A DNA stretch of 35,687 nucleotides from a virus: positions 1 through 35,687 of IMG/VR virus record IMGVR_UViG_3300021963_000361; one strand, written 5' to 3'. Shown here piece after piece: positions 331 through 17,767 of the stretch. How positions within the stretch are numbered: position 1 is the first letter of the stretch; each line of letters opens with the position of its first letter. Under the pieces are notes generated by a model. That model did no database searches, was not told the DNA's origin, and saw nothing but the letters and a program-made list of their open reading frames with translations. Position numbers and translations under genes: made by a program.

Positions 331-435
331 AAGAAAGGGACACATCGGTCACATTGCATCGCCTCCTCGTGGCGTGACTGGATAACCAACCAAGATGCAA
401 ACAAGTATATGTGTGAGGCATGTATACAAAAATAA
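331..435 (+). other. Possible decayed zinc-finger reading frame
   Basis: A 34-codon stretch ending at TAA 433-435 reads like the C-terminus of a small zinc-binding protein (RDWITNQDANKYMCEACIQK, with a C-x2-C pair and an upstream H-x0-C). It has no start codon and is preceded by an in-frame TAA at 328-330. It could be a remnant, a chance frame, or part of an RNA element. Otherwise I see no gene in 280-456. Confidence 0.2.
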
Positions 436-456
436 GAGCCTTTCCTTTATCGGAAG

Positions 457-620
457 GGTGATGGAGTGGATATAGAATATCCAAAGAACAATCGGAAATC
501 ACTATCCCCGTGAACGGTAACTCGAGTATCCCGTGAACTTGTTAGCCAGACTACTATCCTTTATTCGCCTTTAGGAATTAGTAGACCAACTGCAAGGTCC
601 AAATCCTTGCCTCCATCACC
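457..620 (+). ncRNA. Structured RNA with tRNA-acceptor-like termini
   Basis: Bases 457-466 (GGTGATGGAG) pair perfectly with 611-620 (CTCCATCACC), and pairing can continue outward by a few more A-T and G-T pairs. Just inside the 3' strand sits a T-arm-like hairpin, GCAAGG-TCCAAAT-CCTTGC (592-610), whose 7-nt loop resembles the tRNA TTCRANN loop. Just inside the 5' strand is a small hairpin GGATA-TAGAA-TATCC (468-482) in the D-arm position. Between them are further hairpins, e.g. CTACTATCCT/AGGA..TAGTAG (551-584) and CGAGT/ACTTG (523-541). At about 164 nt it is too long for a plain tRNA and too short for tmRNA. I could not assign an anticodon. It could be a tRNA with an insertion, a tRNA-like RNA, or a degenerate copy. 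Confidence 0.4.
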
Positions 621-636
621 TTTCTTATAAATATAT

Positions 637-1240: not shown

Positions 1241-1549
1241 ATGGAAGAACAAACAGTCCAAGAACGTTGTGAAGACTTCAATAAAGCAATCAAAGAAGAA
1301 CTCTATCTCAACGAAGAGAAAGTAGTATACGATGGTATTCATGAAGTCGGTCAAATGCTTTTCGTTAAGCTATGAGACTACCAAGCCTACACAACGAATC
1401 CAATCACTCCAAGCGGTTGGGTAACAATCAAGAAAGATATAAGTGATAAAGAGTTCTTGCGAAATCTAGGACGCTACAAGGAAAAGAAAAGTGTGTTCGA
1501 GATAGTGTACTATTTCGCTATTGATCTCATTAAAAAATACTCATCGTAA
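1241..1549 (+). CDS. Hypothetical protein (102 aa)
   Basis: ATG 1241 to TAA 1547-1549, with one in-frame TGA (LFVKLGDYQAY). The stop-start junction with the upstream gene is TAG-T-ATG, so the two are translationally coupled. The sequence is a mixed alpha/beta small protein with an acidic N-terminal helix and an aromatic, basic C-terminus (EIVYYFAIDLIKKYS). No family recognised. It ends inside the 5' arm of an intrinsic terminator, so it closes this short rightward operon. Confidence 0.75.
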
Positions 1550-1565
1550 TTGGTGAGTGTTTTTC
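1532..1565 (+). terminator. Rho-independent terminator
   Basis: The hairpin TACTCATC (1538-1545) / GGTGAGTG (1552-1559) is flanked by A-rich sequence upstream and TTTTT downstream (1560-1564). It ends the 637-1549 operon, overlapping the last codons of the upstream gene. Confidence 0.75.
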
Positions 1566-1566
1566 T

Positions 1567-1821
1567 ATTTCATACTTGTATGGCTCAAACTGTTGATAGT
1601 ATTCAAACTTACTATTGCAAGCAACTTGTGGCTTGAATATAGGAAACTCTCCCATAGTTCAAACATAGTCACTTATCGTGAGTGCTTGAGTCGCTACTTT
1701 CTTCTTTCAAAAATAAACTTCTCTTATTTCAAATCAATAATCATTCTTTACGGGCTGGGATACTGCTAGCATAGATATGGGGCCTTATATATAGTAAACC
1801 AAAATGAACATAATAAAAAGA
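1567..1821. other. Intergenic region without a supported gene
   Basis: No convincing coding frame on either strand. A frame starting ATGGCTCAAACTGTTG (1579) resembles coding sequence but meets two in-frame TAGs, so it is at best a decayed gene. The stretch holds a short inverted repeat (TATTCAA...TTGAATA, about 1599-1639) and separates the rightward terminator from the 3' end of the leftward gene. Confidence 0.4.
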
Positions 1822-2559
1822 CTATACGTAGAGATTATTATAACACTCTCCATACTCTTCTGGACGTAACCATTCTAACTTTGATTGTATCTTATTACGT
1901 ACCCATTCACTTCTTGAAATATTCATATACGTACATTTGACTCATTTCGTAGCTTGGGCCTTATAATGCGAGTATTTATTGTATATGTATTCAATACCGT
2001 TTGAATAGATGTTTGATAGTCTTGCGAGCTTTCCATTATAAACTGCATAACGTGTAGTCTTCTTTCCTCAAAAAGTATTGAGTGCTGACTTCATACGTCT
2101 ATGAGCTGATTGTTTGCAAGATAATCCGTTCTTCTTTGCAAGTCCATTGAGAGTAATAGATTTGTTATGGCGAAGATACTCCTCTTCATAAGTTATATCT
2201 CTATCAATCTTGTGTGGCCTGCCTGCTTGTAGCCATATCATAAAGTTCTTGAAAGCATTGAGTGAAGTCACTTTTGATAGTTCTTCACTCGTAACGACTG
2301 CAAAAACATTTCCTATCTTATTTAGGCTCGATATAGAACAGAAATCAGTATGAGCGATAGATATGTATTTATTTACATATGCTCATCGTACCCATATTCT
2401 CTCTGCTGTTGATCGACTCATACCTCTGGATAATGCAACACGAACAAAATCCCTCTTGCGTCATTGGCCTCAGAGAAAAGCATACAAGAAAAAGCGTAAT
2501 GCCTGACTGTATACGTATTCTGATTCAATATCGATAATAGGGATTTTGATTGATTGCAT
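1822..2559 (-). CDS. Putative DNA-binding regulator, divergent from the late genes
   Basis: Leftward, ATG 2559 to TAG 1822-1824, 245 aa, five in-frame TGA codons. It is basic and has two stretches that read like helix-turn-helix units: VALSRGMSRSTAERIW (about residues 41-56) and GLAKKNGLSCKQSAHRRMKSAL (about 140-161). The C-terminus is tyrosine- and lysine-rich. I recognise no named family. It is the only leftward gene inside the late region, divergently transcribed from the structural operon at 2792 with promoters back to back, the usual layout of a phage regulator. Its own leader carries a structured element and a terminator before the ATG (2560-2644). A recombination or replication role cannot be excluded. 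Confidence 0.8.
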
Positions 2560-2591
2560 AAAAAAGTGCCTTGTCATTTCTGATTGGCACT
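2560..2591 (-). terminator. Intrinsic terminator immediately before the 2559 start codon (attenuator)
   Basis: On the minus strand the stem AGTGCC (2591-2586) / GGCACT (2570-2565) is followed by six T (2565-2560) and then directly by the ATG at 2559. A terminator between a gene's promoter (2693-2666) and its start codon suggests conditional read-through rather than the end of an upstream transcript, because no leftward gene lies upstream. Confidence 0.65.
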
Positions 2592-2600
2592 CGTTTACGT

Positions 2601-2644
2601 CTCTGGACTACTAGAGGGGTGGTAAACTCTAGTACCACCCAGAG
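2601..2644 (-). promoter_or_regulatory. Structured leader RNA, possible pseudoknot or riboregulator
   Basis: On both strands GGGTGGT (2617-2623) pairs with ACCACCC (2634-2640). The 10-nt loop contains CTCTAGT (2627-2633), complementary to ACTAGAG (2610-2616), which would make a pseudoknot. CTCTGG (2601-2606) can pair with CCAGAG (2639-2644), sharing two bases with the main stem, so alternative folds are possible. It lies between the leftward promoter and the attenuator, in the 5' UTR of the 1822-2559 gene. I do not recognise a known riboswitch class. Confidence 0.5.
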
Positions 2645-2665
2645 CTATGTATGTAACCTGAGATA

Positions 2666-2693
2666 ATAATAATCATAAAAAGAATGAAATCAA
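2666..2693 (-). promoter_or_regulatory. Leftward promoter for the 2559 gene
   Basis: Minus-strand TTGATT (2693-2688), 16-bp spacer, TATTAT (2671-2666). Transcription would start near 2659 and give a leader of about 100 nt. The -35 box lies 49 bp from the -35 box of the divergent rightward promoter, so both could be controlled by the same repeats in between. Confidence 0.5.
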
Positions 2694-2699
2694 GAGTTT

Positions 2700-2769
2700 T
2701 TAACATTTATTAATAGTTTTTAACATTTTTTTGACAAGTTTTTGACAATGAGTTGGTAGAGAGTAAAAT
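2700..2769 (+). promoter_or_regulatory. Late promoter 1 with phased heptamer operator
   Basis: TTGACA (2742-2747), 16-bp spacer, TAAAAT (2764-2769). The -35 box is the second of two TTGACAA heptamers (2731, 2742) exactly 11 bp apart, with a variant TTAACAT 11 bp further upstream (2720) and another at 2700. The 18-bp core TTGACAAGTTTTTGACAA recurs at 17729 and, reversed, at 13556. The predicted transcript starts near 2776, which favours ATG 2792 over the upstream TTG as the start of the next gene. Confidence 0.75.
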
Positions 2770-2791: not shown

Positions 2792-3733
2792 ATGGCAACT
2801 ACAACAACGCTCGCCACTATTCGTACTGCTTGTTACAATACAATCAAACAGCCTGAGGATTGTGCTGCCTATCCTTATGCTCTTATTGATATATTCATTA
2901 ACAAAGCACACACGAATATCTTCGGTGGTACTGTTACTGATATAGTAAGTGGGCAATCACTCGTTAAGAACAATATAAACTTCGCTGATAAAACAGCGTT
3001 TTTCACGTCTGTAATGCCAACAACTCTCTCTGCTACTGCAACAGTAGGAGCAACAAGCGTAACAGTGTCTAGCACGCTCTGATACCCTACAAGTTGAGCA
3101 CTATGGATTGAATGAGATATTATAACATACACAGGGACAACAAGCACAAGCTTCACAGGTATCCCAACAACGTGAGACGGGTCTCTCAGCTTTGCTTGGA
3201 CCTCTGGTACACGTGTATTCGCTCTCTACTCACTCCCTACTGACTTCCTACAGCTTACAAGCGTAGACTATCAATCCACTCCGTGAGGCTCTCTCATTCG
3301 TATGGTTGGTGTAGACTATCGAGACGTAAAGAATCAAGTGCTTAATCAACAGCTCTATCGTTTCTTCCGTGCTGACTACTCAATAGCAAATAATCAAGAG
3401 AGGTATTTCACACTTGTACACGGTCAATATTTCCTTCCATTCCTGCCTCAATCTGGATACGCTCTGAGATTTGAGTATCAAAAGACTCCAACGAATCTTG
3501 TGCTATCGAGCGACATATCATCTATTCCTGATCAATACGTTCTCAATACTGTGCCTTACCTGGCTACATGAGAGATGCTCTTCAATCGTTGAGAAAGTGA
3601 CGAAGGTATGAAGCTCTTCAAATTCGGATACTTGAACGTTCGTGATATGTATCGATTCTACAACACACAATGAAAGGACTTGATATACAATCAACGTATA
3701 CGTACAGCGTCTGATGGTTACATAAATATATAA
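2792..3733 (+). CDS. Virion structural protein, probable head-tail/tail connector region
   Basis: ATG 2792 to TAA 3731-3733, 313 aa, seven in-frame TGA codons. The N-terminal 70 residues look helical and adaptor-like (TLATIRTACYNTIKQ). Residues about 80-115 follow the phage beta-sandwich pattern in which alternating Thr/Val strands lead to IEGDIITYTG and FTGI, often seen in phage neck and tail proteins. The C-terminal half is aromatic-rich and ends GYINI. It is the first gene of the operon driven by late promoter 1. A neck or tail-completion role is inferred from position and composition; no exact family is named. Confidence 0.7.
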
Positions 3734-13555: not shown

Positions 13556-13594
13556 TTGTCAAAAACTTGTCAATAACTTGTCAAAAAGTATAAT
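13556..13594 (+). promoter_or_regulatory. Late promoter 2 with phased heptamer operator
   Basis: TTGTCA (13567-13572), 16-bp spacer, TATAAT (13589-13594). Three TTGTCAA heptamers start at 13556, 13567 and 13578, each 11 bp apart. The 18-bp sequence 13556-13573 is the exact reverse complement of the core at 2731 and 17729. It drives the 13619-17714 packaging genes. Confidence 0.8.
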
Positions 13595-17417: not shown

Positions 17418-17714
17418 ATGAATATCGACAAGAAAACATTCGAGAATCTCAAAGAGATATTCGATGCTCATAACGAGCTAACTATCCAAGATATAGAAGC
17501 TATTGATATAGCTCGTGATTCTCTTGTGAAATACTTCAGTGCTTACCGTCTTGCTCTTGTTGTAGAAAAGATACACGATGTGTGAAACGATAGGGAGCTA
17601 TCCGCTCAAATCAATCTCATGTCTTCACTTATTGACGAGACAAAGAGCGGTATTGATAAACTCAGACTCTCCTATCTGAAAAAGAAAGCCGAAGAGGAAG
17701 AGAAGAGTGAGTAG
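17418..17714 (+). CDS. Hypothetical protein following portal (98 aa)
   Basis: ATG 17418, one base after the portal stop, to TAG 17712-17714, one in-frame TGA. All-helical, with a Glu/Lys-rich C-terminus (LRLSYLKKKAEEEEKSE), suggesting an oligomeric or disordered tail. It is the last gene of the packaging operon, just before the terminator and late promoter 3. No family recognised. Confidence 0.75.
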
Positions 17715-17717
17715 TTA

Positions 17718-17767
17718 TTAACAAGTTTTTGACAAGTTTTTGACAATGAAATTGTACGGTGTATTAT
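17718..17767 (+). promoter_or_regulatory. Late promoter 3 with phased heptamer operator
   Basis: TTGACA (17740-17745), 16-bp spacer, TATTAT (17762-17767). TTGACAA heptamers at 17729 and 17740 and a variant TTAACAA at 17718 are all spaced 11 bp. The 18-bp core is identical to that at 2731. It drives the scaffold and capsid genes. The -10 box lies inside the hairpin of the terminator that ends the preceding operon. Confidence 0.78.

What the first reader, a model, noticed from the sequence alone, without database searches (positions are those of the whole stretch)
2560..2693. Attenuator-type leader in front of the divergent regulator gene
The minus-strand transcript would begin near 2659, fold a pseudoknot-capable element (2601-2644) and then meet an intrinsic terminator whose T-run touches the ATG at 2559. 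GTTTAC (2629-2624) can also pair with GTAAAC (2598-2593) just upstream of the terminator stem. This is the architecture of a riboswitch or protein-controlled attenuator, and I know no matching class.
Basis: partly seen in the sequence, partly recalled or inferred. Interest (0 to 1): 0.75.

Follow-up and report, generated by a model that had tools for sequence, protein, structure and literature searches.

The report
RNA switch before a mobile phage gene
The start of this phage gene's transcript can fold into either a stop signal or a structure that blocks the stop signal, and both folds are kept in two relatives whose letters have changed, so it is very likely a real RNA on/off switch of a kind not in the RNA family library, controlling a gene that sits in different places in related phages.

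Summary
The finding holds up. The minus-strand leader 2659-2560 has a plausible sigma-70 promoter, interleaved inverted repeats and a terminator-like hairpin whose T-run touches ATG 2559. A relative of the 245-aa gene (L134; 98% identical protein, inserted elsewhere) and an RNA-model search gave two further leaders (L134, L144). Between window and L134 the leader is 67% identical, yet all 43 counted base pairs are kept. Fourteen of these are changed on both sides and none is broken; 300 shuffles gave at most 33 of 43.

The helices exclude one another. One set makes the terminator state, another (X, C, Y) captures the 5' half of the terminator, so this is an attenuator with terminator and antiterminator. 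GTTTAC lies at 2627-2622, not 2629-2624.

Sequence-specific recognition by the 245-aa protein is unlikely: leader helices differ in front of 98% identical proteins, and one leader stands before an HNH endonuclease ORF instead. The leader belongs to a gene cassette found at different sites. The effector is unknown: RNA in trans or an intrinsic throttle fit best. No Rfam family matches. Three sequences only; no experiment.

The parts
2666..2693 (-). promoter of the leader, TTGATT-16-TATTAT
   Evidence: TTGACT-16-TATCAT at the corresponding place in L134 and L140
2560..2659 (-). untranslated attenuator leader RNA
   Evidence: fold z -3.1; homologous structured leaders L134:82-174 and L144:7487-7573
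2601..2644 (-). helix O: CTCTGG 2644-2639 with CCAGAG 2606-2601 (terminator-permissive state)
   Evidence: 6/6 pairs kept in L134, 1 changed on both sides, 1 on one side
2617..2640 (-). helix A: GGGTGGTA 2640-2633 with TACCACCC 2624-2617 (early hairpin)
   Evidence: 8/8 pairs kept in L134, 5 changed on both sides; one further double change in L144
2609..2634 (-). helix B: TACTAGAG 2634-2627 with CTCTAGTA 2616-2609 (excludes A)
   Evidence: 8/8 pairs kept in L134, 2 changed on both sides
2593..2627 (-). helix C of the antiterminator: GTTTAC 2627-2622 with GTAAAC 2598-2593
   Evidence: 6/6 pairs kept in L134, 4 changed on both sides
2585..2637 (-). helix X, the antiterminator proper: TGGTACT 2637-2631 with AGTGCCA 2591-2585 (5' arm of the terminator)
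   Evidence: 5/5 core pairs kept in L134, one changed on both sides together with the matching terminator pair; folds in nascent RNA; one pair lost in L144
2579..2643 (-). helix Y of the antiterminator: TCTGG 2643-2639 with TCAGA 2583-2579 in the terminator loop
   Evidence: appears in the antiterminator folds of all three leaders
2560..2591 (-). terminator-like hairpin AGTGCC 2591-2586 / GGCACT 2570-2565 and T-run 2565-2560
   Evidence: double changes in L134 and in L144; only such hairpin before an ORF start in the window; the TCAGAAATGA loop recurs in terminator-like hairpins of related genomes
1822..2559 (-). controlled gene, 245 aa, code 25, function unknown
   Evidence: 98% identical protein in L134, dS 0.25 and dN 0.011; no family match
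1530..1772 (-). second gene of the cassette, 80 aa, unknown
   Evidence: 81% identical protein follows the 245-aa gene in L134
1539..1565 (.). hairpin with T-runs on both strands at the cassette's 3' end
   Evidence: sequence; a different hairpin with a T-run stands at the same place in L134 and L140

Best explanation
A cis-acting transcription attenuator. The minus-strand transcript starts near 2659 and folds as it is made: hairpin A first, then B and O displace it. When the 5' arm of the terminator emerges, two outcomes compete: either O+B stay and the terminator forms, ending transcription at 2560, or helices X, C and Y capture the 5' arm (antiterminator) and the polymerase enters the gene at 2559. 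With all sequence made, termination is the most stable outcome, so the gene is off or low by default. The hairpin touching the ATG may also hinder translation in RNAs that escape. The leader belongs to a gene cassette found at different sites in related phages, so it probably limits the output of mobile genes in the middle of the phage's late region. Shown: conserved mutually exclusive helices and their linked changes. Inferred: termination, default off, and that a trans factor shifts the balance. The trans factor is not known; RNA pairing or no factor at all (an intrinsic throttle) fit better than a sequence-specific protein.
For: Window against L134: 43/43 pairs in seven helices kept, 14 with both sides changed, 2 with one, none broken; shuffled L134 leaders reach mean 28.1, sd 1.6, maximum 33 in 300 shuffles. 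One base of the terminator's 5' arm changed (C2587 to T) and both its alternative partners, in the terminator and in X, changed to match. The third leader, found by the covariance model at 87.7 bits, adds double changes in A and in the terminator. Both states can be folded in all three leaders. Promoters TTGAYT-16-TATYAT stand upstream of all three. The terminator loop TCAGAAATGA recurs in strong terminator-like hairpins of the same class of genomes.
Against: Only three leaders; no experiment. In L134 and L144 the predicted O+B state beats the antiterminator even before the terminator's 3' arm is made (-27.2 vs -23.8; -21.7 vs -16.4), while in the window it is the reverse (-19.3 vs -21.9), so folding energy alone does not settle the switch. 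L144 has lost one X pair. In L144 the leader's ATG opens only a 3-codon frame; the HNH ORF starts about 200 nt further on and a copy of the promoter-like ATTATTATATTGACT lies just before it. Control (a) of the pair count on two sequences has little power (60/500).
Confidence: 0.8

Rival explanations
1. RNA-in-trans control: the short terminated leader RNA (or an antisense RNA) pairs with nascent leaders and forces termination, so that each leader sequence type responds to its own RNA, as in phage P4 immunity or pT181/pIP501 plasmids. (This is one way of filling the effector gap of the best explanation, not a denial of it.)
For: Structure kept while helix sequences differ between leader types: the L134 leader is 60/89 identical to the window's, whereas the promoter region in front of it is 59/69 identical to that of L140; leader type and downstream gene are combined in more than one way. 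P4 CI RNA works this way (PMC4825925); plasmid attenuators from general knowledge, cited in PMC7430163.
Against: No opposite-strand promoter close to the leader was listed; no complement longer than chance elsewhere in the window; the window is a fragment.
Confidence: 0.25
2. Ligand-binding riboswitch with a new ligand.
For: Interleaved helices followed by a terminator/antiterminator platform.
Against: A ligand pocket needs conserved unpaired bases; the conserved bases here are mainly those with several alternative pairing partners (CTCT, AGAG, TCAGA); mobile unrelated genes downstream are unusual for a metabolite switch.
Confidence: 0.1
3. Autoregulation by the 245-aa protein binding its leader RNA or DNA.
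For: Gene directly downstream; sequence suggestive of helix-turn-helix segments (by eye only).
Against: Protein 98% identical while leader helices differ; leader also precedes an HNH ORF without this gene; structure prediction uninformative (pLDDT 33).
Confidence: 0.1
4. Palindromic DNA operator or recombination site, not an RNA element.
For: Perfect inverted repeats between two divergent promoters; mobile cassette.
Against: A DNA site is recognised by sequence, which differs; linked changes extend to C, X and the terminator, which are not part of the palindromes; a T-run and the gene's ATG follow directly.
Confidence: 0.05
5. Mainly a translational lock: the hairpin at the ATG blocks ribosomes, as in T4 homing endonuclease genes.
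For: T-run touches the ATG; start codons in the window appear to lack Shine-Dalgarno sites (by eye), so an open start region matters; T4 I-TevI, segB and Aeh1 mobE are controlled by hairpins (PMC2988022).
Against: A 6-T run, a loop shared with other terminator-like hairpins and an antiterminator fit termination better; the start codon itself lies just outside the hairpin.
Confidence: 0.15

Closest known systems
Transcription attenuators with terminator and antiterminator (general kind; review text in PMC7430163)
   Same: two mutually exclusive folds of a leader, one an intrinsic terminator
   Different: no leader peptide, no known ligand or protein; three or more overlapping alternatives; phage cassette of a code-25 host group
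Phage P4 CI RNA / seqA, seqC immunity (PMC4825925)
   Same: untranslated phage leader with internal complementarities and premature termination
   Different: no CI-like RNA or separate target sites shown here; no Rfam match
pT181 / pIP501 antisense attenuators (general knowledge; pIP501 cited in PMC7430163)
   Same: overlapping complementary segments upstream of a terminator
   Different: no opposite-strand promoter close to the leader found
RNA hairpins before T4-type homing endonuclease genes (PMC2988022)
   Same: mobile phage genes kept low by leader RNA structure; one of the three leaders stands before an HNH endonuclease ORF
   Different: those sequester the ribosome binding site; here a terminator and an antiterminator are the main features

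Membership tests
Transcription attenuator (terminator/antiterminator) | intrinsic terminator between promoter and gene | tested here: met
   hairpin plus 6 T before ATG in window and L134, with linked changes; by sequence only
Transcription attenuator (terminator/antiterminator) | alternative helix capturing a terminator arm, conserved | tested here: met
   helix X kept in L134 with a linked change; one of seven pairs lost in L144
Transcription attenuator (terminator/antiterminator) | regulated termination in vitro or in vivo | not testable with these tools
   needs transcription assays
Any Rfam 15 family (riboswitch, leader, attenuator) | score above the family's gathering cut-off | tested here: not met
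   no match in the window at gathering; best sub-threshold hit in 2400-2850 is on the other strand, E 9.7; none for L134 and L140 up to E 2
Riboswitch | conserved ligand-binding core of unpaired bases | tested here: inconclusive
   conserved bases mostly take part in alternative pairs; only three sequences
Antisense-RNA attenuator (pT181, pIP501) | promoter on the opposite strand giving an RNA that covers the leader | tested here: inconclusive
   no plus-strand sigma-70-like site within 2400-2700, but other promoter types are not covered
P4-type immunity RNA | processed leader RNA pairing with separate target sites up- and downstream | tested here: inconclusive
   interleaved self-complementarity present; no separate target longer than chance in the window
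T4-type homing endonuclease hairpin | hairpin sequesters a Shine-Dalgarno site of an endonuclease gene | tested here: not met
   no Shine-Dalgarno-like sequence before ATG 2559 (sequence); the 245-aa protein has no endonuclease match

The most novel reading that the evidence does not exclude
A modular phage RNA specificity system: leader types act as self/non-self tags, the terminated leader RNA silencing incoming cassettes of the same type in trans, while the body behind the leader (245-aa gene or HNH endonuclease) is exchanged by recombination.
Probability: 0.15. Interest if true: 0.85.

Novelty: new variant of a known kind. Interest (0 to 1): 0.6.

Why it matters
It would be a phage attenuator family not held in Rfam, in phages of bacteria that read TGA as glycine; the one paper on such phages found here does not mention attenuators, leaders or terminators (PMC10746230). 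It sits on small gene cassettes at different sites, including one with an HNH endonuclease ORF, so it suggests how mobile genes may be kept quiet within a phage's late region. The overlapping helices with linked changes give clear predictions for a simple transcription assay.

Tried and rejected
Pseudoknot: rejected because the 3' strands of A and B are 0-1 nt apart in all three leaders. ATG 2577 as start: out of frame in L134. Relatives of the 245-aa protein: none in phages, IMG/VR, PHROGs, Pfam, NCBIfam or PDB sequences; only L134 in genome contigs; two weak hits among 380 phylum genomes (L136, L137) were read and judged spurious. Model R1 in 353 genomes of the class gave only G011; two hits near E 0.007 are terminator-like hairpins or partial. 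Pattern TCAGAAATGA-T-run-ATG in the same genomes found terminator-like hairpins but no other interleaved leader. Relatives of the HNH ORF in the class: one weak, its upstream region not examined. Structure prediction of the 245-aa protein: pLDDT 33, no use. Related phages lack the cassette: the late gene upstream abuts the adaptor gene. A leader peptide was considered; the only open frames over the leader start at GTG/TTG and their codons are not kept. A first version of the interleaved-repeat scan missed the window's own element because its overlap rule was one base too strict; one search replaces it.

Full report
Setting. The window is a linear IMG/VR virus record. Under code 25 (TGA = Gly) it is a phage with an SU10-type adaptor gene (2792-3733), terminase and portal genes and a capsid-like gene (conserved next to them in relatives; no family match) in late orientation; the host group is inferred from the code (PMC10746230 describes code-25 phages of Gracilibacteria and Absconditabacteria). 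The gene in question (2559-1822, minus, 245 aa) and an 80-aa gene (1772-1530) lie against the late direction, between a small late ORF and the adaptor gene. In six related phages the late gene upstream abuts the adaptor and no such block is present.

Observation. Interleaved 8-bp repeats like these occur in 7 of 1000 shuffles of the window, and no other hairpin plus T-run directly before an ORF start was found in the window or 13 phage loci; L134 has one.

Relatives. A genome-contig scan with the protein found L134 (a 3.4-kb contig of a metagenome-assembled genome, G011), with a 98% identical protein followed by an 81% identical second protein, but next to a phage holin gene instead of the adaptor gene. 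So the same two-gene cassette sits at different places in related phages. The 245-aa gene has dS 0.25; the leader is 60/89 identical.

Covariation. Mapping seven helices from window to L134 keeps 43 of 43 pairs; 14 changed on both sides, 2 on one, none broken. The helices overlap, so some bases serve several pairs and are counted once per pair. Shuffled L134 leaders, with free sliding of helix arms, reach 28.1 on average and 33 at most in 300. C2587 of the window is T in L134, and its partner in the terminator and its partner in X both changed from G to A. Model R1 then found a third leader in the same genome, G011:C2:7487-7574, at 87.7 bits, with further double changes in A and in the terminator.

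Mechanism. Constrained folding shows that the same two sets of helices are possible in all three leaders: O+B followed by the terminator, and an antiterminator made of X (5' arm of the terminator), C, the small CTCT/AGAG hairpin and Y (CTCTGG region with TCAGA of the terminator loop). Y may explain why AATCAGAAATGA in the loop is conserved; the same loop also occurs in plain terminator-like hairpins of related genomes, which supports the hairpin being a terminator. The full-length RNA favours termination by 8.5 to 15 kcal/mol. Before the 3' arm is made, the antiterminator is favoured in the window but not in L134 or L144; energies are predictions only. A and B share one or two bases and their 3' strands are 0-1 nt apart, so they most likely exclude each other rather than form a pseudoknot.

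What controls it. The third leader stands before an HNH endonuclease ORF (PHROG 119, E 1e-12) about 200 nt downstream, between endolysin-like and holin genes, the locus that carries the 245-aa gene in L134 (downstream flanks 724/744 identical). Leader type 1 therefore occurs with two bodies, and the 245-aa body with two leader types. That argues against sequence-specific control by the 245-aa protein and for recombination between leader and body. No opposite-strand promoter and no complementary RNA in the window were found. RNA in trans, or no factor at all, remain the best guesses.

Comparison. No Rfam family matches. It works like known attenuators (PMC7430163), with echoes of P4 immunity RNA (PMC4825925) and of the RNA hairpins that keep T4 homing endonucleases low (PMC2988022). 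It is filed as a new variant of a known kind. Limits: three leaders, two of them from one metagenome bin (perhaps two phage strains binned together), no experiment.

Noticed in passing
348-410 (+) and 455-625 (+): Sub-threshold match to an HDV-like ribozyme (RF02682, 17.9 bits, E 0.51) about 45 nt upstream of a tRNA-like fold (z -4.24; ARAGORN finds no tRNA). Recalls the theta ribozymes of phages linked to tRNAs (PMC10879173).
   Followed up: partly
2695-2747 (+), 13557-13589 (-), 17713-17745 (+): Three arrays of AGTTTTTRACA-like repeats, mostly 11 bp apart, at or overlapping promoter-like sites of late genes; possible binding sites of a late regulator. The array at 2695 lies next to the promoter of the attenuator leader.
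   Followed up: partly
L140 1447-1461 and 1784-1798: 15-nt direct repeat ATTATTATATTGACT flanks a 337-bp segment that holds promoter and leader and ends before the HNH ORF.
   Followed up: no
1773-1821: Intergenic stretch between the 245-aa and 80-aa genes is nearly identical in L134 (TTTTTATTATGTTCATTTTGGTTTACTATATATAAGGCCCCATA), although it is non-coding.
   Followed up: no
window, whole: Genes read through in code 25 (TGA = Gly); start codons appear to lack Shine-Dalgarno sites (by eye, not counted).
   Followed up: no
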